Source: Methylacidiphilum sp. Yel (GTDB lineage Bacteria > Verrucomicrobiota > Verrucomicrobiia > Methylacidiphilales > Methylacidiphilaceae). Taken from it: DNA of 64,000 nucleotides. Positions 49,076 through 59,403 of the stretch are shown here, piece by piece; position 1 is the stretch's first letter; every line of letters begins with the position of its first letter. Where the stretch lies: the NCBI RefSeq assembly GCF_004421185.1, contig NZ_LXQB01000088.1, forward strand, positions 1-64,000. The letters are read 5' to 3'. Under the pieces are notes generated by a model, which did not search any database, was not told the DNA's origin, and saw only the letters and a list, made by a program, of their open reading frames with translations. A program made the translations under genes and the position numbers.

Positions 49076-49747
49076 ATGCGTATTCTTGTCGTCGAAGATG
49101 AAGGTAAAATCTGCCGATTCATTGCCAAGGGATTGGAAGCAGAGGGTTTTGTTGTCGATACTTGCAACCGAGGTGAGGAGGCCCTACTTCAATTGCTCAC
49201 AACCCCTTATGATGCAGCGATCTTAGACATTATGCTTCCAGGACCAGATGGGATCAGTGTCCTTAAGGCTGTTAGGGAAAAAGGGGTTCATCTTCCTATT
49301 CTTTTATTGAGTGCAAGAAGCCAAACAAGAGACAAAATAGAAGGGTTGAACAGTGGTGCTGACGACTATCTTCCAAAACCTTTTTCTATGGATGAGCTAG
49401 TGGCTCGTTTAAGGGCCTTAATCCGAAGAACGGCAGGTGTCGGTCTCTCTGTTTATAAAGTAGGGAATTTGACGCTGAATTTGGTAACAAGAGAAGTGTT
49501 CCGCGGTCAAAAGAAAATCGATTTAACGGCAAAGGAATTTTCCCTTCTTGAGCTACTAATGAGAACACCAGGAAGAGTTTTCACGAGGACTCAAATTTGT
49601 GAGCATGTTTGGAATTATCATTTTGATCCTGGAACAAACCTTGTGGATGTCTATATCCAAAAGCTGCGCAAAAAGATTGACGAACTGGAAGAACAAAAAT
49701 TGATACAAACCGTTCGGGGTGTTGGCTACAAGATAGAAGCCGTCTAG
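49076..49747 (+). CDS. OmpR-family response regulator
   Basis: 223 aa: a receiver domain (1-115) with phospho-acceptor Asp51 in AAILDIMLPGPDG and Lys in DDYLPKPFSMDELVAR, and a winged-helix DNA-binding domain (125-220) with LTAKEFSLLELLMRTPGRVF and VDVYIQKLRKKID. It pairs with the sensor kinase 11 bp downstream. Because of the metal pump operon nearby it may be a CusR/CzcR-type metal regulator (inference). Confidence 0.93.
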   Translation: MRILVVEDEGKICRFIAKGLEAEGFVVDTCNRGEEALLQLLTTPYDAAILDIMLPGPDGISVLKAVREKGVHLPILLLSARSQTRDKIEGLNSGADDYLPKPFSMDELVARLRALIRRTAGVGLSVYKVGNLTLNLVTREVFRGQKKIDLTAKEFSLLELLMRTPGRVFTRTQICEHVWNYHFDPGTNLVDVYIQKLRKKIDELEEQKLIQTVRGVGYKIEAV

Positions 49748-49758
49748 GAAACCCTGCT

Positions 49759-51165
49759 GTGGCCATTTCTATTGTTGCTATGAAAAACCTTCCTCTAGGC
49801 TGGAAGATAGCCCTTTGGAGCGCTTTTTTAGTTGGAGTCTCTCTTCTTTCATCTGGAATTGTCGCTGGCTTGGCCCTCTATAGAGAGTTGATTGAAAGTA
49901 CAGACAAAGAGTTGAAAACCGATTCGATTGAATTGGTCGGTCTTTTAACCGAAAAGCCTGTCTCCTTCTTTTCTTCTAAAGACTCATTTTCTTTGAATAT
50001 TAATCCCTTCGAAGAAAGCTCCATTCTCGAACTGTCTTATTCTAATCCAGCATTGATCTACAAATCGCCACTCTTAGCTGGTAAAAACCTCTTTGAAGAC
50101 CATGCAATCAACAGTTTTTTTTATGCACAACTTGGAGATGGCCTCTATCGCGTATTTTATACTGAAAAGAACGGGTATAAGCTTGCTCTTGGGAAAAAGA
50201 TGCTTTCGATCTATGAAATCCTCACTGAAGCTTCCTACGCCTATCTACTATCTGCCCCCTTCGCTTTGATCCTTTCCACTTTTGGAGGTTGGTGGATCTC
50301 TAGAAAGGCTTTGCTGCCCATCCGTCAAATGACCTCTACCCTTGAACAGATCAGAGCTTCGGCTTTGCATCAAAGACTTTCCATTCCAGCACTAGATCCA
50401 GATCTTAAAAGGCTTGTAACGATCCTCAATGAAATGCTTGGAAGATTGGAAGAGGCTTTTCAAAGAGAAATTAGACTGACCGCTGATGCCTCCCACGAAT
50501 TAAAAACACCCCTAACCATTTTAAAAAACGAGTTGGAATCAGCACTCCAAAGAACTGATATAGATAGTCAAACTGAAAAAACGTTTCTGAACTTATACGA
50601 ACAGGTCCAGTCTTTAAGCTCTATTACGCAAACACTTCTTTTTTTATCTAATTTGGATAGAGACAGTTCTTTTATAAAACCGACTCGTATCGACATATCC
50701 CAAATCCTCAACGAAATTTTAGAAGACACCGCTATTCTTGCTGCCTCCAAAGGGATCACTATTGAAAAGCAACTCCCCCAATCGACTCCCATGATTGCCG
50801 ACGAAGATCTCATACGCCGACTCTTATGGAATATCTTTGACAATGCTATTCAGTACAATATTTCAGGGGGGTACATAGGCGTGAGCTTGCAACTTAAAGG
50901 TACTGACCGATGCCTTCTTCAGATAAGTAACAGTGGGCCTGTAGTGCCCGAAGAAGAAAGAAAAAAAATTTTCGAACGCTTTTACAGAGGGAAGAATGCT
51001 ACTGAACATGGAATTTCTGGACATGGACTAGGTCTTAATTTGTGTAGGGAAATTGTGCTCGCCCATAAAGGAGAAATTACCTACTTGATTGATGAAAAAG
51101 GACACAACCAGTTTTCCCTCCTTCTTCCAACAGGTTGTGGTAATGAATCAGAGAAAAAAAACTAG
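49759..51165 (+). CDS. Sensor histidine kinase
   Basis: 468 aa, two transmembrane segments (about 20-42 and 160-180) flanking a sensing domain of about 115 residues, then HAMP (about 180-230), the dimerisation domain with phospho-acceptor His246 in DASHELKTPLTILKNELE, and an ATP-binding domain with N box NIFDNAIQYN and G boxes GHGLGLNLC. The GTG start has AGGA nine bases upstream; ATG at 49,780 is an alternative. The architecture matches CusS/CzcS-type kinases. Confidence 0.93.
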   Translation: MAISIVAMKNLPLGWKIALWSAFLVGVSLLSSGIVAGLALYRELIESTDKELKTDSIELVGLLTEKPVSFFSSKDSFSLNINPFEESSILELSYSNPALIYKSPLLAGKNLFEDHAINSFFYAQLGDGLYRVFYTEKNGYKLALGKKMLSIYEILTEASYAYLLSAPFALILSTFGGWWISRKALLPIRQMTSTLEQIRASALHQRLSIPALDPDLKRLVTILNEMLGRLEEAFQREIRLTADASHELKTPLTILKNELESALQRTDIDSQTEKTFLNLYEQVQSLSSITQTLLFLSNLDRDSSFIKPTRIDISQILNEILEDTAILAASKGITIEKQLPQSTPMIADEDLIRRLLWNIFDNAIQYNISGGYIGVSLQLKGTDRCLLQISNSGPVVPEEERKKIFERFYRGKNATEHGISGHGLGLNLCREIVLAHKGEITYLIDEKGHNQFSLLLPTGCGNESEKKN

Positions 51166-52060: not shown

Positions 52061-53404
52061 ATGAGCTTTCACATCATAGTCATGAAAATAGGTTATGGCA
52101 TGCAACTGCTTAGTATCTGGATTTTCTGTTTTATCGCCTTTGATTGCATATATGGAGCAGAGAATAAAGAAAGACTTTTAAAAAAGCTGGTTGAACAAGC
52201 CCTTACAGTCGATCCCACAGTCCGTTATTTTTATATGGAAATCGAAGCGGCAAAAGGTCAACAAATTCAGGCTAGACTATTTCCTTTCCCTCAGTTCATC
52301 GGGTATATTGGACCATGGAATAGCAGTGGCTCTATTAATGCTCCTTCGGCCTTCATTCCCTATGGCTATCAGTTATACCAACTTTACCAACCCCTTCCAT
52401 TTCCTGGTAAGCTTAAATCTCATAAAGAAATAGCTCATCTAGACCGGGAAATTGCCGAGCTTGTTTTTTTAAGATACAAATTATTTTTAGCCTTCAAAGT
52501 CTATTCCCTTCTTTACAGTATAGGACTTACCAACGAAAATCTTCGAGTCACTGAAGAAATCATTGAAAGGCTATCGGCCTTGATTACCTTTTTGTCACAA
52601 AGACCTAAGATTGGTATCCAAGGCCTTATTGAACTAAAAGTTCTTCAGGGAAGTTTAATTAGTTTTCTCCAGAGCCAAAGGGATCAGCAACAAAACCTGA
52701 CCACTCTCAAATCTCAACTCAACGCCCTTTTAAATCAATCTCCTTTAACCCCCTTACCTTCGAACATCCTTCCTGAGAGAACTTTCCCTAAACTAAGTCT
52801 GGAATCTCTCCGAGGGTTAGCATTAACTCATAACCCCACAATTCTTATCAATGATCTTTTAATACGCAGGGCTGAAAAAGAGCTCTACTTAGCCAAGCTA
52901 AATGCCTATCCAGATTTCACTGCTGGTCCTTTCTGGGAATACAACAAAGGCATTAATACCGATCAGGGAGGTGGGATTACTTTTACTGTAGGAATTCCTT
53001 TCAGCGGTTCGAATGTTCCAGGTCAAGCCGGATTTGCATGGACAACGAACAAAGGAAACATTATCAGTGCGCAAGCAAAAGTATCCCAAGCTCATTCCAT
53101 ATACCATGCTACTGTTCAAATGATTGATTCTTTACTTGGCTCCCGATTTGCTGTTTATGAAAAAGCTCGAGAACAACTCCTATCATTGCCTTCGGAAAAA
53201 ATTTTAGAGAAGCTGAAAGAGGCAGCAGCTATTGCAGAAAGACAGTACCGAGTAGGATCGATTGATATCAACCGGTTTCTAGCAGTCCAAAAACAATACC
53301 AAGCGGTTTCTTTATCAATCAGAAATACTGAAATCGATCTGCTCTCATCCTTTTACGAATTAGAGAACATTGCCGGAATAGAACCTAGCCAAACTATATT
53401 TTAA
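52061..53404 (+). CDS. Outer-membrane efflux protein 1 (CzcC/TolC type)
   Basis: 447 aa with an N-terminal hydrophobic signal (about 15-30) and the repeated helical-hairpin pattern of the outer-membrane factor family: YMEIEAAKGQQIQARLFPFP, QRPKIGIQGLIELKVLQGSL, and near the end AAAIAERQYRVGSIDINRFL. It forms the outer-membrane channel for the pump encoded downstream. Its neighbour at 53,406 is a clear paralogue, sharing EAAKGQ, RPKIGIQGL, and AERQYRVG. Confidence 0.87.
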   Translation: MSFHIIVMKIGYGMQLLSIWIFCFIAFDCIYGAENKERLLKKLVEQALTVDPTVRYFYMEIEAAKGQQIQARLFPFPQFIGYIGPWNSSGSINAPSAFIPYGYQLYQLYQPLPFPGKLKSHKEIAHLDREIAELVFLRYKLFLAFKVYSLLYSIGLTNENLRVTEEIIERLSALITFLSQRPKIGIQGLIELKVLQGSLISFLQSQRDQQQNLTTLKSQLNALLNQSPLTPLPSNILPERTFPKLSLESLRGLALTHNPTILINDLLIRRAEKELYLAKLNAYPDFTAGPFWEYNKGINTDQGGGITFTVGIPFSGSNVPGQAGFAWTTNKGNIISAQAKVSQAHSIYHATVQMIDSLLGSRFAVYEKAREQLLSLPSEKILEKLKEAAAIAERQYRVGSIDINRFLAVQKQYQAVSLSIRNTEIDLLSSFYELENIAGIEPSQTIF

Positions 53405-53405
53405 A

Positions 53406-54719
53406 ATGAAAACACAGCCCAAAATTAAGCCTTGTTATCCTTTTTTTCTTCTTGAACTCCTGGTCCTTTGTCTCTGTTTTTTTTGTCTTCCTTTTTCTTT
53501 GAAAGGCCAATCGGATAAGTTGAACTTTTCTATTACGATTCAAAATCTCATAGAAGAAGCCTACCGGAGGAATCCAGAAATACTCTATTATGAAGCAGGG
53601 ATCGAAGCGGCTAAAGGTCAATCGATCCAAGCAAAAATTTTACCCTATCCAGAAATTGTTGGCTATGCCGGCCCATGGTTTAGCTCCCCAAGTCAGGGAG
53701 AAAAAGCAGGTGGGGCAACGGGTTTTTACCAAGAATACGAAATCGTTCAGCCCTTTTTCTTCCCTGGGAAAATGGACATTCTTAAAGCCATTTCAGACAA
53801 AGATGGAGAATTAGCAAGGCTTTGGTTAAATCAATTCAAGTTAAGCTTAAGAGCGCAAGTGGCAAGCCTTGCTTATCAGTTGGCTGTCGCCGATGTGAAT
53901 GCAAAAGCAACACAAGAAATTGTCAACCAAAGCAAAGAACTAATCGATTTTTTAGCAAAACGCCCAAAAATCGGAATTCAAGGGCTGCTTGATTTGAGGA
54001 TAATCCAGGGAAGTTTAGTTGATTTTCAGAGAATGTACAGGGAGCAGGAACAACTAAAAAAAACAGTGTTTGCTCAACTCAACGCTATTCTTGGCTATCC
54101 TCCAGAGCATCCTCTTCCTCAAAATATTTTACCGCCAGTCCAATGGCCTACTGTTCCTGATCTACAAAAGCTTCTTGATTTGGCAAGCAGACAAAACAAT
54201 TTCATCAAAATGCGAGTGGTGGAAATCGAACGAGCTGGAAAAGTAATCGATTCGGCAAAGCTGATGAATATGCCAGATTTCGGTCTTGGTCCTTATTTCA
54301 TTCAGGAAAAAGGGACAAACAACAACATTGGTCCAGGAGTGATTTTTACTAGTGGCGTTCCTCTTTGGAATCAGAACCGTGGAAATATTCTTAGCTCTGA
54401 AGCAAGAAAAGAGCAGGCGGTTTCCATGCTCGCTTCAACTTGGAGAATGGTTCAAAGTGCGATCAACTCCAGATTAGAAGTATATAGACAAGCAACCAAC
54501 TTATTAGCTAAACAGCCACTATCCCTTTTGGAAGAACTTCGTTCGGCCGTCAATCTTGCCGAAAGACAGTATCGGGTTGGAGCCCTGCCTGTTCAAACAT
54601 TTCTAGAAATGCAAAGACAATATCTCTTCAGTGCGCTTACTTTAAGAACTGCACAGATCGATGCAGCGGTTGCTTTCTATGACCTACAAACCCTTACTGG
54701 TGGAGAATGGTCAAAATAA
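53406..54719 (+). CDS. Outer-membrane efflux protein 2 (CzcC/TolC type)
   Basis: 437 aa, paralogue of the preceding gene, only one base after its stop. Signal peptide (about 8-35), then IEAAKGQSIQAKILPYPEIV, KRPKIGIQGLLDLRIIQGSL and NLAERQYRVGALPVQTFLEM. The tandem pair arose by duplication. The two channels might serve different pumps or conditions, or form mixed trimers (inference). Confidence 0.87.
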   Translation: MKTQPKIKPCYPFFLLELLVLCLCFFCLPFSLKGQSDKLNFSITIQNLIEEAYRRNPEILYYEAGIEAAKGQSIQAKILPYPEIVGYAGPWFSSPSQGEKAGGATGFYQEYEIVQPFFFPGKMDILKAISDKDGELARLWLNQFKLSLRAQVASLAYQLAVADVNAKATQEIVNQSKELIDFLAKRPKIGIQGLLDLRIIQGSLVDFQRMYREQEQLKKTVFAQLNAILGYPPEHPLPQNILPPVQWPTVPDLQKLLDLASRQNNFIKMRVVEIERAGKVIDSAKLMNMPDFGLGPYFIQEKGTNNNIGPGVIFTSGVPLWNQNRGNILSSEARKEQAVSMLASTWRMVQSAINSRLEVYRQATNLLAKQPLSLLEELRSAVNLAERQYRVGALPVQTFLEMQRQYLFSALTLRTAQIDAAVAFYDLQTLTGGEWSK

Positions 54720-54733
54720 CATTAAAATGATAA

Positions 54734-55615
54734 ATGCTACTGACTGCAATGCACTTCTGTTTTTTATTGTGCCCCTTCCTAATAAAGTTTCCAGGCTTTA
54801 CCTCTTTTTTTATTTTCTTTTTTGTTCTCATAGCTTGGTTGACTTTCTTTTTTTATCCTTCCCTTTATGGAGAAGTTATGAACAATCCTTCTGGAGCTTC
54901 TGCGCCGGAGATTGTTTTTGAAGAGTCTCTGCCGCGACTGGACCCCTCCTCTCCGCCGCAATTCATTCCTGGTAAAGGACTTTTCCTTGGTGAAATCACA
55001 GAAAAAGAAATGGGGATTCAAAAAGAGGCCGCGGTCGAAAAGGAAATTGCTCCCCTCTACTTTGGAGAAAGTCAAGTTTACAGGGCCTCATGGGAAAAAA
55101 CTTCCGAGCAGAGTGGTTTGAAAGAAGGTTTTGCCTATTCTACTTCTTTTATTGATGCTAAAGATTCTGAAAAACTTAACGTTGGTCAACGCGTGCTTGT
55201 TAAATCCAAACAGGAAAGCTCAGAGGCTAGCTATGAGGGAAAGATTTTTTTTATAGACAAAGAGCTCATTCCAGTCATAGGGAAAGCTGAACTCATTTTA
55301 CAGATCACTGATCCTAAACAGAGTCTCCAAGCGGGTGATTGGATAAACTTTGAAACTTCCCTGGGGCTGGTTGCAACTTGGGTAACTGTTCCTGAATCGG
55401 CAATTTTGTACACCGCCAGTGGCTGCTTCTCCTATCTTTTTTTAGGTCATGGCAGGTATCTACGCAAACCGATTGAAGTCGCCTTTGTCAGTCAAGGAAT
55501 AGCCGCCATAAAAAAAGGAATCGAAAAAGGACAAGAGGTTGTGACACACGGGGCCAAACAGCTTTGGTTACTCGAACTGTCTCTGTCTCAATCTGGAGGG
55601 CCTTCCACCTACTAA
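54734..55615 (+). CDS. Compact periplasmic adaptor-like protein of the efflux system
   Basis: 293 aa with one or two N-terminal hydrophobic segments (about 5-45). It has beta-barrel and membrane-proximal parts like CzcB/HlyD adaptors (VGQRVLVKSKQESSEASYEG, VPESAILYTASGCFSYLFLG and the end GIEKGQEVVTHGAKQL). The long alpha-helical hairpin and the two lipoyl halves of normal adaptors, which run to 350-500 residues, are not seen. It lies between the channel and pump genes, so the role is clear from context, but it must contact its partners differently. Confidence 0.7.
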   Translation: MLLTAMHFCFLLCPFLIKFPGFTSFFIFFFVLIAWLTFFFYPSLYGEVMNNPSGASAPEIVFEESLPRLDPSSPPQFIPGKGLFLGEITEKEMGIQKEAAVEKEIAPLYFGESQVYRASWEKTSEQSGLKEGFAYSTSFIDAKDSEKLNVGQRVLVKSKQESSEASYEGKIFFIDKELIPVIGKAELILQITDPKQSLQAGDWINFETSLGLVATWVTVPESAILYTASGCFSYLFLGHGRYLRKPIEVAFVSQGIAAIKKGIEKGQEVVTHGAKQLWLLELSLSQSGGPSTY

Positions 55616-55624
55616 AGCAAAGTT

Positions 55625-58600
55625 ATGACAAGAAAGATCATTTTTTTGTCTATCGAAAAGAAAGAAATTGTCCTTGGCTTAGCCATTGTTCTATTCATCG
55701 TCGGACTATGGTCTTTTTTCCATCTGCCTATTGATGCTGTTCCAGATCTATCGAATGTTCAAGTTCAAATTAATACCTATGTTCCCGCTTTTGCCCCTGA
55801 AGAAGTAGAAAAACTAATCACTTTCCCAATAGAAATCGAAATGGGAGGGATCCCAGGGCTAGAAACGATCCGTTCTCTAAGCAAATTCGGTCTTTCTCAA
55901 GTGACATTAATCTTTAGAGACGGGACTGATGTTTATCGCAGTAGGCAACTTGTAGGCGAAAGGCTACTGGTGGCCAGCTCAAAGATTCCACCTAATATTA
56001 CCCCAACCATGGCACCCATAGCCACAGGACTGGGCGAAATTTTCAATTACATTATCCGCTATAAAGAAGGCGCAGACAAGCCTTCTTCGGAACTGCTTCA
56101 ATTGATAGAACTACGCCTACTCCAGGAATACACAATTAGACCGATGCTTAGAAGGGTAGCAGGCGTAGCCGATGTAAATACGAGCGGTGGGTATCAAAAG
56201 CTGATACTCGTGGAACCTGATCCTAGTCGGCTGACTAATGTGGGGCTGACGATTGGTGAATTTGGGCATATTGTTGGCCAAAATACGGAGATTGCCGGTG
56301 GAGGAGTCATCAATAAAGCGGGCGAACAGCTTACAGTAAGATCTTTGGGCAGGGTGAATACGCTTGATGAAATTGCGATAATCCCGATTAAATACGCTGG
56401 AGGATCACGGCCAGTATTAGTAAGGGATGTAGCTAAGGTAGAAGTGGGAGGCAACATCCGAGTAGGAGCAGCAACTTACAATGGTGCAGAAGCTGTTCTT
56501 GGAACAGTGATGATGCTTATTAAAGAAAATAGTCGGACTGTTTCTGAGAGAGTGAGCAAGCAGTTGGAACTTATCCAGCAAAGAATTCCCTCTTCCTTCG
56601 AAATCATTCCCGTTTATAACAGGGCAGATGTAGTTAATGCAACCATCCGAACAGTGACTCATAACTTGACGGAGGGAGCACTATTAGTCACTGCAATCAT
56701 CTTTGTTTTACTGGGTAACTGGAGAAGTTCATTACTTATCGCCTCAGTCATTCCTATGTCCTTCCTTTTTGCCATCACTCTTATGTGTTGGTTGGGACTT
56801 TCCGGAAACCTTATGAGCTTAGGGGCTATTGATTTTGGATTGATCGTTGATGGAGCTGTCGTCGTTACAGAAAATGTTCTTCGAAGGCTCTCTGTAAAAG
56901 AGGCTTTACTTGCTCGACCTATCAGTCCAGAAGAAAAAAGAAAAGAAATCTTCGATGCTACTTTACAAGTAATCGGCTCTGTCTTCTTTGGGATTCTAAT
57001 TATTACAGTCGTCTATCTACCGATTCTCACCCTCTCTGGAATCGAAGGGAAGACCTTTAGACCCATGGCGATAACTGTTATTTTCATTCTTTCTGGCTCT
57101 CTACTGTTGAGTTTAACCTATGTCCCAACCGTAGCCGTGCTTGGTTTAAAAGCTCAAAAGGAAATGAAAGAAACTTTTCTGGTCTCTGTGCTTAAAAAGG
57201 CCTATCTTTTGGTGTTGCATTGGACACTAGCTTCTGGCAAATGGATAGTTCTTCCTGCTGCTCTGCTCTTAATAGCTGGCGCCTTTATGGCCTTTAGTCG
57301 GCTAGGAACCGAATTCATCCCAAGACTTGAAGAAGGATCAATTGCTGCCATGATCTATAGAGCCTGGTCCAGTGATTTGCCTTCCTCGGTAGCTATGGAA
57401 AAAAAGACTGAAAAGATGCTTTTAGAAAAATTCCCAGAAATCAAATGCATCTTTTCTAGAGTAGGCACTTCAGAAATTGCTACCGATCCCATGCCCCCAA
57501 ACGAAAATGACATCTACTTGATGCTAAAACCAAAAGATATTTGGAGAAAGAAAAATGGAAAACCGATTTCCAAAGCAGAGCTTATTGAGTTGATAAACAA
57601 AGAAATTTCCTACCGCGTCCCTGGACAAAAAGTCCTTTTTTCCCAACCCATTGAAACACGATTCAATGAAATGCTCGAAGGCGTCCGAACGGATCTTTCG
57701 ATCAAATGGTTTGGAGAAGATTACGATATTTTAACCAATTTAGCCAAGCAAACCGAAGCAATTGTCAAATCTATCCCTGGAACTCTTGAAACCCAAATTC
57801 AAGCCGAAGGAGATGCTCCTTCTCTAGAATTTTTTCCTGATCGACAGTTGATGGCCAAATATAATATCGAAGCCAGCGAAATGAATTCGGCAATATATTC
57901 GGCGATGGCTGGGAACCCTGTAGGTCTCATTATCGATGGAGAAAAGCGATATCCTATTACTATCCGACTTTCAGAACACTTTAGAGAAAATCCAGAAGAA
58001 ATCCTTAATCTGCCAATTAAATCGGTGACTGGCGGTGTAATGCCACTTTCTTCTATCTGCCACTACCAAATTTGTAAAAGGCCGCGATCGATTTTCAGAG
58101 AAAACGGCGTTCGCTATCGTGCTGTCATGGTCAGTTTTACAAAGAAAGATATCGAAGGGTATGTTGAGGAAATCAGAAAAAAAGTTGAAAAACAGATTCA
58201 TCCTCCTAAGGGATATTACGTCGAGTATACCGGTCAGTATCAAAATTTAATAAAAGCAAGGCAGAGACTCTTTGTTATTGTACCCTCTTGCCTGTTACTT
58301 ATCTTCTTTTTATCGTATATCGCCCTGAAAAATTTCAAACAGAGTCTTCTTGTCATTTCTAGTGTCCCTTTTGCAGCCACCGGTGGCATATTATCTCTTT
58401 TCTTTTTACATATTCCTTTTAGTATTTCTGCAGCCATTGGTATGATCGCTCTTTCAGGTATATCCGTTCTGGCCTCTTTGATCCTCGTCACCTTTATCAA
58501 CCAGCTTCGACAGGAAGGATATGAACTAAAAGAAGCGATTGAAAGAAGCTGTGACTTAAGATTTCGACCGATACTGACCACTGCAGCGGTTGCAAGCCTT

Positions 58601-58804
58601 GGCTTTATCCCAATGGCACTTTCTAGAGGAGCTGGGGCTGAAGTTCAAAAACCTCTTGCCATTGTTGTCATTGGAGGGATTGGTTCATCGACTTTCCTAA
58701 CCCTTTTATTGCTACCTCTTTTGTATTTTTATCTGGAATATCGAAAAGAAAAAAAACAAGTTCATCCAATAGTCAAAGAGAAAGAATTCCTTGAAAAAAA
58801 ATAA
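55625..58804 (+). CDS. czcA: RND heavy-metal efflux pump, CzcA type
   Basis: 1,059 aa with the RND plan: one transmembrane helix, a large periplasmic loop, six helices, then the same again. The proton-relay motif in helix 4 reads AIDFGLIVDGAVVVTEN, with Asp403, Asp409 and Glu416 at nearly the CzcA positions 402, 408 and 415. This points to divalent cations (Co, Zn, Cd, Ni) rather than Cu/Ag-type CusA. Last gene of the operon with the adaptor and channels. Confidence 0.93.
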   Translation: MTRKIIFLSIEKKEIVLGLAIVLFIVGLWSFFHLPIDAVPDLSNVQVQINTYVPAFAPEEVEKLITFPIEIEMGGIPGLETIRSLSKFGLSQVTLIFRDGTDVYRSRQLVGERLLVASSKIPPNITPTMAPIATGLGEIFNYIIRYKEGADKPSSELLQLIELRLLQEYTIRPMLRRVAGVADVNTSGGYQKLILVEPDPSRLTNVGLTIGEFGHIVGQNTEIAGGGVINKAGEQLTVRSLGRVNTLDEIAIIPIKYAGGSRPVLVRDVAKVEVGGNIRVGAATYNGAEAVLGTVMMLIKENSRTVSERVSKQLELIQQRIPSSFEIIPVYNRADVVNATIRTVTHNLTEGALLVTAIIFVLLGNWRSSLLIASVIPMSFLFAITLMCWLGLSGNLMSLGAIDFGLIVDGAVVVTENVLRRLSVKEALLARPISPEEKRKEIFDATLQVIGSVFFGILIITVVYLPILTLSGIEGKTFRPMAITVIFILSGSLLLSLTYVPTVAVLGLKAQKEMKETFLVSVLKKAYLLVLHWTLASGKWIVLPAALLLIAGAFMAFSRLGTEFIPRLEEGSIAAMIYRAWSSDLPSSVAMEKKTEKMLLEKFPEIKCIFSRVGTSEIATDPMPPNENDIYLMLKPKDIWRKKNGKPISKAELIELINKEISYRVPGQKVLFSQPIETRFNEMLEGVRTDLSIKWFGEDYDILTNLAKQTEAIVKSIPGTLETQIQAEGDAPSLEFFPDRQLMAKYNIEASEMNSAIYSAMAGNPVGLIIDGEKRYPITIRLSEHFRENPEEILNLPIKSVTGGVMPLSSICHYQICKRPRSIFRENGVRYRAVMVSFTKKDIEGYVEEIRKKVEKQIHPPKGYYVEYTGQYQNLIKARQRLFVIVPSCLLLIFFLSYIALKNFKQSLLVISSVPFAATGGILSLFFLHIPFSISAAIGMIALSGISVLASLILVTFINQLRQEGYELKEAIERSCDLRFRPILTTAAVASLGFIPMALSRGAGAEVQKPLAIVVIGGIGSSTFLTLLLLPLLYFYLEYRKEKKQVHPIVKEKEFLEKK

Positions 58805-58851: not shown

Positions 58852-59403
58852 TTGTTACTAAAGAAAAGGCTGCAGTTTTTGTATCCTTGGTGTCTTATTT
58901 TTTTCCTTTTTTCCCTGATGCATGGATTGATGGCGGAAAGAGAAAAAAATTTTCAATGGATTAGAAGCCAAACGGAGGTTCAGATTTCAGAAATTATTGT
59001 TAGCTTATCGGAACAAAAAATCTATGCCTATGGTACCAATGGGAAACTTGTTGGCACATCGATTATTTCTTCAGGAAAAGAAAATTTTTCTACCCCAGCT
59101 GGAGAATACCAGATCATAGAAAAAGAAAAAATTCATTATTCAAACCTTTATGGCTATATTGTCGACCGTAATGGAAATATCCTACGGCCAGGCAGTTCTA
59201 AAGAAAGAATTTCAAAAAAATGGCATTTTCGAGGAGCCCCAATGCCCTACTTCCTGCGCTTGACAAACAGTGGCATCGGCTTTCATGGTGGGCCAACCAC
59301 AGGCCGGCCTATTTCTCATGGATGTATCCGATTGCCTATGGATTTTGCTGTAAAACTTTTTACAAACACCCCTATTCACACCAGAGTACTTGTTTTCAAT
59401 TAA
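58852..59403 (+). CDS. L,D-transpeptidase (YkuD family)
   Basis: 183 aa, TTG start with AAGGG nearby. A signal/anchor segment (about 8-25) is followed by a YkuD domain: QIYAYGTNGKLV-type start, STPAGEYQIIEKEKIHYSNL, and the catalytic GFHGGPTTGRPISHGCIRLP with nucleophile Cys158 and His two residues before. It forms 3-3 cross-links in peptidoglycan or attaches proteins to it. It follows the pump gene by 47 bp and may be on its transcript. Confidence 0.9.
   Translation: MLLKKRLQFLYPWCLIFFLFSLMHGLMAEREKNFQWIRSQTEVQISEIIVSLSEQKIYAYGTNGKLVGTSIISSGKENFSTPAGEYQIIEKEKIHYSNLYGYIVDRNGNILRPGSSKERISKKWHFRGAPMPYFLRLTNSGIGFHGGPTTGRPISHGCIRLPMDFAVKLFTNTPIHTRVLVFN

What the first reader, a model, noticed from the sequence alone, without database searches (positions are those of the whole stretch)
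52061..58804. Metal efflux operon with two channels and an adaptor lacking its hairpin
Two tandem paralogous channels, a 293-aa adaptor without visible lipoyl and coiled-hairpin parts, and a CzcA-type pump with the D/D/E relay suggest an altered tripartite geometry. The volcanic, metal-rich habitat inferred for the host fits. The adjacent two-component system may sense the metal.
Basis: partly seen in the sequence, partly recalled or inferred. Interest (0 to 1): 0.5.

Follow-up and report, generated by a model that had tools for sequence, protein, structure and literature searches.

The report
Metal pump with a stump adaptor
A bacterial metal-export pump keeps only the half of its connector protein that grips the pump and has lost the arm thought to reach the outer-membrane exit channel, so these pumps probably join to their exit in some other way.

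Summary
Window 52061-58804 is a tight four-gene operon: two paralogous TolC-type channels, a short adaptor, and a CzcA-type RND pump with D403/D409/E416. Against E. coli CusB the adaptor has one clean gap, CusB 128-238, i.e. lipoyl domain plus alpha-hairpin. The AlphaFold2 model shows only membrane-proximal and beta-barrel domains (CusB Z 15.1). This is not decay: 22 of 24 family rows (window included) share the gap, and the order channel - short adaptor - pump recurs across Verrucomicrobiota. Their pumps form one group. A few relatives have lost the barrel too. The closest precedent, BesA, lost only its hairpin; its authors rely on the lipoyl domain for channel contact (PMC3807786). Neither pump nor modelled channel shows a compensating extension. 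The channel pair is a separate, later duplication seen only in two genera: the first copy has Arg/Ala in 9 of 9, the second Thr/Glu in 9 of 9, at the TolC D371/D374 gate positions. Best reading: a pump collar without a bridge, channel and pump touching directly. That contact is inferred; a full adaptor acting in trans is not excluded. New variant of a known kind.

The parts
52061..53404 (+). OEP1: first TolC-type outer-membrane channel, 447 aa; copy with Arg/Ala at the gate positions
53406..54719 (+). OEP2: second TolC-type channel, 437 aa; gate positions Thr398/Glu401; full-length TolC-fold model
54734..55615 (+). short RND adaptor, 293 aa: N-terminal hydrophobic segment, membrane-proximal and beta-barrel domains only; no lipoyl domain, no hairpin
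55085..55129 (+). junction where the lipoyl + hairpin insert is missing: loop residues 118-132 of the adaptor, between strands 108-117 and 133-141 of the model
55625..58804 (+). CzcA-type RND pump, 1059 aa, D403/D409/E416; no indel over 11 aa against CusA
49076..49747 (+). response regulator, CzcR/CopR-like (below cut-off); possible regulator
49759..51165 (+). sensor kinase, CzcS/CopS-like (below cut-off); possible metal sensor
58852..59403 (+). L,D-transpeptidase (YkuD) 47 bases after the pump, found there in 5 of 5 loci of the genus; link to the pump unknown

Best explanation
This is a proton-driven heavy-metal (CzcA-type, probably divalent cation) efflux operon. Its adaptor has been cut back to the modules that sit on the pump: the membrane-proximal domain and the beta-barrel. 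SHOWN: the domain loss, its conservation, the pairing with one group of D/D/E pumps and with TolC-type channels, the absence of a large extension in pump or modelled channel, and a lineage-limited doubling of the channel with opposite residues at the gate positions. INFERRED: the stump proteins form a collar round the periplasmic part of the pump, as the same domains of CusB do on CusA, and stabilise it or, in relatives with His/Cys tails, hand metal to it. The channel then docks directly on the pump's docking domain, with little or no help from the adaptor. In genera g1 and g3, OEP1 and OEP2 probably share work: either a mixed OEP1/OEP2 channel, or two alternative channels for one pump.
For: Single gap CusB 128-238. 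It removes CusB M190 (domain 4), M227 and A236 (domain 3) and keeps M241 and A248 (domain 2) and M324 (domain 1), as assigned in passages of PMC6715271. Model with 140 of 293 residues at pLDDT 90 or more, matching CusB over 195 residues, Z 15.1. Channel, short adaptor and pump adjacent in 25 of 28 loci of the order, window included, the other 3 cut by contig ends, and in that order in 20 of 20 further phylum loci. The 47 pumps of short-adaptor operons form one group, with one orphan pump of the own genome inside it; 43 of 47 have D/D/E and 4 of 47 D/D/D; of the 10 other pumps only that orphan has D/D/E. OEP2 model aligns with TolC and CusC end to end, Z 28.5 and 25.0, so no longer barrel. Pump against CusA: largest indel 11 aa. 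First channel copies of g1 and g3 group together (support 94/93); R398/A401 in 9 of 9 first copies, T/E in 9 of 9 second copies.
Against: No complex was modelled; direct docking is argued by exclusion. Full-length adaptors exist elsewhere in the genome, and in three relatives (L043, L051, L127) a separate operon with a full-type adaptor and its own pump lies within 10 kb. In AcrAB-TolC and MexAB-OprM the hairpins form the join (general knowledge), and a bare join would leave a gap unless the channel sits lower. Substrate was not tested. The model's first 75 residues are of low confidence. A mixed channel rests on sequence pattern alone; in the channel tree the second copies are not resolved as one clade, and the branch uniting the first copies joins long branches (warning). 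The pump tree carries a similar warning.
Confidence: 0.55

Rival explanations
1. The bridge is supplied in trans: a full-length adaptor from another locus joins the pump to the channels, and the short protein is only an accessory collar or metal donor.
For: The own genome has 6 TIGR01730 matches over the cut-off on other contigs, including a 472-aa frame beside a CusA-type pump on contig 25. In L043, L051 and L127 a full-type adaptor with its own pump lies within 10 kb of the short-adaptor operon.
Against: No second adaptor was seen between channel and pump in the operons examined (search by the short profile and three full adaptors of the own genome). The adaptors on contigs 12 (78362-79303), 25 and 52 sit beside their own pumps. 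The short adaptor alone is kept beside channel and pump across the phylum.
Confidence: 0.2
2. Another small periplasmic protein replaces the lost arm.
For: A family of 154-176 aa (8 aligned) with His and CxxC / CxC motifs follows the pump in 15 of 35 scored loci; an L,D-transpeptidase follows it in the window's genus.
Against: The small protein looks like a metal carrier, and no match better than E 0.27 was found in the own genome. No neighbour family other than pump, adaptor and channel reaches more than 15 of the 35 scored loci.
Confidence: 0.1
3. The adaptor is a decaying remnant, and the pump no longer drives export across the outer membrane.
For: Adaptor dN/dS (0.17 and 0.33) is higher than the pump's (0.07 and 0.07); its N-terminus varies between close relatives, and the window's family lacks the His/Cys tail found in 13 of 24 rows (my reading).
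Against: No stop inside the matched frame in the 5 genomes of the genus, same gap through the order, dN/dS well under 1, strong core conservation.
Confidence: 0.07
4. Ordinary CzcCBA operon; the adaptor is normal and only looks short.
For: Gene order and pump are ordinary.
Against: Model and alignments show two of four domains absent.
Confidence: 0.02

Closest known systems
BesA of Borrelia burgdorferi (BesCAB; PDB 4KKS, 4KKT, 4KKU)
   Same: RND adaptor without alpha-hairpin in an operon with a TolC homologue and an RND pump; keeps membrane-proximal and beta-barrel domains (PMC3807786); structural match Z 13.5-13.7
   Different: BesA keeps the lipoyl domain, which its authors propose contacts the channel; the window's adaptor has lost that too. 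BesABC is a drug pump; this one is of the metal type.
Hairpin-less adaptor of a Legionella fallonii plasmid (324 aa, WP_157010450.1)
   Same: TolC - short adaptor - RND pump order, no hairpin; PMC3807786 already mentions Legionella among hairpin-less sequences
   Different: Keeps both lipoyl halves (my reading; not modelled)
CusCBA of E. coli and ZneA/ZneB of Cupriavidus
   Same: Metal RND pump, TolC-type channel, adaptor homologous in the membrane-proximal and barrel domains
   Different: Their adaptors have lipoyl and helical domains; CusA has A, not D, at the first relay position (alignment); the cus operon has one channel gene
EmrA of Aquifex aeolicus
   Same: Known case of an adaptor that lacks a domain to suit its pump (PMC4158417, abstract in listings)
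   Different: EmrA lacks the membrane-proximal domain and has a longer hairpin: the opposite trimming

Membership tests
RND periplasmic adaptor family (RND_mfp, TIGR01730) | score over the curated cut-off of 94.9 bits | tested here: not met
   55.2 bits, positions 177-313 of 322 only
RND periplasmic adaptor family (RND_mfp, TIGR01730) | membrane-proximal and beta-barrel domains | tested here: met
   AlphaFold2 model, match to CusB 195 residues Z 15.1
RND periplasmic adaptor family (RND_mfp, TIGR01730) | lipoyl domain | tested here: not met
   gap CusB 128-238; no such element in the model
RND periplasmic adaptor family (RND_mfp, TIGR01730) | alpha-helical hairpin | tested here: not met
BesA-type hairpin-less adaptors | lipoyl domain kept, hairpin replaced by a short loop | tested here: not met
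   hairpin absent, but lipoyl absent as well
CusA/CzcA heavy-metal RND pumps (TIGR00914) | score over the cut-off of 701 bits | tested here: met
   1097 bits
CusA/CzcA heavy-metal RND pumps (TIGR00914) | D/D/E proton relay of the CzcA type (type recalled) | tested here: met
   D403, D409, E416
CusA/CzcA heavy-metal RND pumps (TIGR00914) | export of Co/Zn/Cd/Ni shown | not testable with these tools
   needs a metal assay
TolC-type outer-membrane factors (PF02321) | two OEP repeats and full-length TolC fold | tested here: met
   two matches in each channel; fold tested on OEP2 only, Z 25.0 with CusC and 28.5 with TolC
CzcRS/CopRS metal two-component systems (TIGR01387, TIGR01386) | score over the curated cut-offs | tested here: not met
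   246.2 of 279.2 and 202.2 of 292.55 bits

The most novel reading that the evidence does not exclude
A clade of metal RND pumps in Verrucomicrobiota works without any adaptor bridge. The adaptor has been reduced step by step from four domains to two, and in some members to the membrane-proximal domain alone, while the TolC-type channel docks directly on the pump. In two genera the channel has become a hetero-oligomer of two duplicated subunits whose gate ring pairs Arg of one with Glu of the other.
Probability: 0.35. Interest if true: 0.85.

Novelty: new variant of a known kind. Interest (0 to 1): 0.6.

Why it matters
How the RND pump and the TolC channel meet (directly, or tip-to-tip through the adaptor's hairpins) has been disputed (reviewed in PMC4446572, passages). 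BesA is the structurally known exception named in the papers read, and its authors saved channel contact by assigning it to the lipoyl domain. Here that domain is gone as well, and in some relatives the barrel too. If these pumps export metal across the outer membrane, the bridging role of adaptors is dispensable, and the part that cannot be lost is the one that sits on the pump. The graded series (CusB, BesA/Legionella, window, membrane-proximal-only) makes the duty of each adaptor domain testable. The doubled channels offer a candidate for a mixed TolC-type trimer.

Tried and rejected
Considered and rejected. (1) A compensating longer channel: OEP2 model and OEP repeat lengths are ordinary. 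(2) A compensating insertion in the pump: none over 11 aa against CusA. (3) A BesC-like loss of all gate residues: not so; among the 46 channels of these operons, the 38 that are not first copies all keep an acid at the D374 position and have none at the D371 position; the 8 first copies lack both (one row, L122, is divergent and its alignment there unsure). (4) A conserved hairpin gene next door: one search gave no neighbour family in more than 15 of 35 scored loci besides pump, adaptor and channel. (5) Lipoyl-less adaptors outside the phylum: in 72,556 plasmid records no place covers 80% of the query (the adaptor of relative L082), and the 20 rows shown of 60 cover at most 46%. The scan of the 84,980-species collection used two peptide patterns only and gave 9 loci, all Verrucomicrobiota by title. 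Neither is a full search of other phyla.

Led nowhere: the promoter/terminator scan found fewer sites than shuffles give. The region upstream of OEP1 is partly conserved in the genus, but I identified no regulator repeat there. A first regular-expression count of the D/D/E residues was faulty and was replaced by alignment columns.

Rows dropped. A1 holds 24 of the 28 short adaptors fetched as loci; L009, L010, L011 and L021 were left out as near copies or cut contigs, L030 is the same gene as L004, and L002 and L031 are full-type. In one search, 9 of 44 loci had no scored adaptor because my overlap filter removed it, and in L043 and L051 the anchor was a full-type adaptor. In one search three pumps under 900 aa were dropped, and the main pumps of L048 and L129 were lost by the same filter; the label 'short-linked' was set by me by locus and includes the second tandem pumps of g3. 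One search lacked the second channel of L038, which was read. One search left out channels of 500 aa or more.

Literature: search listings 8, 26, 36, 68, 78, 79, 91, 92, 95; PMC3807786 parts 1 and 2 of 4; passages of PMC8277102, PMC4446572, PMC13328181, PMC4338810, PMC6688271, PMC8779874 and PMC6715271; PMC4158417 abstract in listings only. That I found no lipoyl-less RND adaptor in print rests on searches of an open-access library; that I found no mixed TolC trimer rests on search 92, whose two papers I did not check for it.

Full report
WHAT IS THERE. Window 52061-58804 holds four genes on the + strand with gaps of 1, 14 and 9 bases: two TolC-type channels (here OEP1 and OEP2), a 293-aa protein and a 1059-aa RND pump. 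Pfam and NCBIfam name the channels and the pump without doubt. The 293-aa protein only reaches the rear part of the RND adaptor model, 55.2 bits against a cut-off of 94.9. Upstream lie an opposite-strand gene that reads like a phosphoglycerate mutase (my reading, not scanned) and a CzcR/CzcS-like two-component pair that scores below the curated cut-offs. Downstream is an L,D-transpeptidase gene.

THE ADAPTOR. An AlphaFold2 model from an alignment of the window protein with eight relatives has mean pLDDT 77.8, with 140 of 293 residues at 90 or more; residues 1-17, 40-65 and 288-293 are under 50. It shows a membrane-proximal domain and a beta-barrel, and nothing like a lipoyl domain or a hairpin. 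VIA-align puts CusB first (Z 15.1, 195 residues, rmsd 3.9), then ZneB and BesA (Z 13.7 each). Aligned with E. coli CusB (fetched), 22 of 24 family rows, window included, have one gap that starts at CusB 128 and ends at 238 (21 rows) or 239 (one row); the other two have 121-245 and 122-238. Passages of PMC6715271 place CusB M190 in domain 4, M227 and A236 in domain 3, M241 and A248 in domain 2 and M324 in domain 1. The gap therefore takes out domains 3 and 4 and spares 1 and 2.

IT IS A FAMILY. Of 40 genomes searched with the window protein (own included), 25 have a match. In 25 of the 28 short-adaptor loci fetched from this order, window included, the short gene lies between a channel gene and a pump gene; in the other 3 the contig ends. 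A profile search of 387 genomes of the phylum gave 23 genomes with short-type matches among the rows at E 2e-23 or better; the list was cut and weaker rows were not sorted, so this is a lower bound. I read 17 frames behind these and (L090, L098-L113) and the surroundings of 20 loci: channel, short adaptor and pump in that order in 20 of 20, the channel of L123 being cut by its contig and 688 bases lying between adaptor and pump in L127. In L090, L121 and L122 the aligned adaptor has only 136-151 aa, and the gap runs from CusB 105 (102 in L122) to 318, so the barrel is lost too and only the membrane-proximal domain remains; L136 looks the same by profile coordinates. In the plasmid collection the adaptor of relative L082 finds, in the 20 rows shown of 60, only the rear part of other adaptors. 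The best of these, from Legionella fallonii, has 324 aa, no hairpin and, by my reading, both lipoyl halves. That gives a graded series: CusB (four domains), BesA and Legionella (three), the window (two), and L090, L121 and L122 (one).

THE PUMP. Its best solved relatives are ZneA and CusA. Against CusA it has no indel over 11 residues. In a quick tree of 57 pumps, with warnings about long branches, the 47 of short-adaptor operons form one group; the only intruder is a second pump of the own genome on contig 65, a contig without any adaptor or channel match. 43 of the 47 have D/D/E at the relay positions and 4 have D/D/D; of the 10 other pumps, 7 have A/D/E, one S/D/E, one T/D/E, and the contig-65 pump D/D/E. 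The four D/D/D pumps are the second of two tandem pumps in the sister genus g3.

THE TWO CHANNELS. Tandem channels occur in 5 of 5 loci of the window's genus g1 and in 4 of 4 loci read of genus g3. The related genus g2 (L036) and the other loci showed one channel per operon (L123 is cut and cannot tell). In a tree of 48 channels the first copies of g1 and g3 group together (support 94/93), which fits one duplication before the two genera split; but the second copies are not resolved as one clade, and long branches meet there. The AlphaFold2 model of OEP2 matches TolC and CusC over the full length (Z 28.5 and 25.0). At the second tip, the positions that align with TolC D371 and D374 (CusC: E, D) are R and A in 9 of 9 first copies and T and E in 9 of 9 second copies. 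Among the 46 channels of these operons, the 38 that are not first copies all have an acid at the second position and none at the first. Six channels from elsewhere in the own genome have an acid at the first position, 6 of 6. The first copy thus carries a conserved positive residue three places from where the second carries a negative one, about one helical turn. That is the basis for the idea of a mixed channel; it is a pattern, not proof.

OTHER PARTS OF THE SYSTEM. In relatives outside the window's family the adaptor often has a lipoprotein-type cysteine (13 of 24 rows) and a His/Cys-rich tail (13 of 24 rows), by my reading; the 10 rows of the window's family have neither. In 15 of 35 scored loci a small protein with His and a Cys cluster follows the pump; the one member scanned has no Pfam match, and no good match was found in the own genome (best E 0.27). 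One P-type metal ATPase neighbour was scanned and confirmed, and its similarity cluster occurs in 13 loci. These neighbours fit a metal system, probably for divalent cations. The metal is not known.

HOW IT MOST LIKELY WORKS. Shown: what is lost, what is kept, and that it is kept together. Inferred: the two remaining domains are those that sit on the pump, so the stump still forms a collar. Neither modelled channel nor pump is longer than usual, so the collar should not reach the channel tip as a hairpin does. The channel must then sit directly on the pump, or something supplied in trans must bridge. I give direct docking 0.55 and a trans adaptor 0.2; the genome does encode full adaptors, and in L043, L051 and L127 one lies within 10 kb in a separate operon.

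COMPARISON WITH WHAT IS KNOWN. BesA (PMC3807786, parts 1 and 2 of 4 read) lacks the hairpin and keeps the lipoyl domain. [quoted passage not shown] Reviews of 2015 and 2021 name BesA as the aberrant case (passages). I found no report of an RND adaptor without a lipoyl domain (searches; open-access library only). Two genome papers on Methylacidiphilum count heavy-metal pumps and, in the passages read, do not mention the adaptor's form; that the host belongs to that genus is likely but was not tested. So it is a new variant of tripartite metal pumps, more extreme than BesA.

VERDICT. The finding is real and better than first described: the adaptor is a defined, conserved, two-domain form of a phylum-wide series, while the doubled channel is a separate event with its own interesting residue swap. 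Interest 0.6; it would rise if direct docking or a mixed channel were shown.

Noticed in passing
L090 5713-6237, L121 8818-9390, L122 8745-9200, L136 8180-9157: Adaptors reduced further, to little more than the membrane-proximal domain, still between a TolC-type channel and a CzcA-type pump.
   Followed up: partly
L037, L038, L039, L040 (genus g3): Operon of two channels, one short adaptor and two tandem pumps; the second pump has D/D/D instead of D/D/E at the proton relay, which recalls paired pumps of the MdtBC kind (recalled).
   Followed up: partly
L141 7306-10518 (own genome, contig 65): Orphan CzcA-type pump of the same group without adaptor or channel match on its contig; the orthologue has one stop in G004 and three in G002, so it seems to be decaying there.
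   Followed up: partly
L085 9934-10410, L042 13943-14419, L046 4975-5484 and others: Small periplasmic His/Cys-cluster protein after the pump in 15 of 35 scored loci; the one member scanned has no Pfam family; possible metal carrier.
   Followed up: partly
L085 4143-4631, L042 8075-8563, L046 10811-11257: Another small secreted-looking protein just before the channel gene, in 6 loci; no Pfam match for the one scanned.
   Followed up: no
window 58852-59403: L,D-transpeptidase 47 bases after the pump in 5 of 5 loci of the genus; could anchor an envelope part, or be a chance neighbour.
   Followed up: no
L143 3410-4384: Legionella fallonii plasmid RND operon with a hairpin-less adaptor that seems to keep its lipoyl domain: a BesA-like form next to metal genes.
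   Followed up: partly
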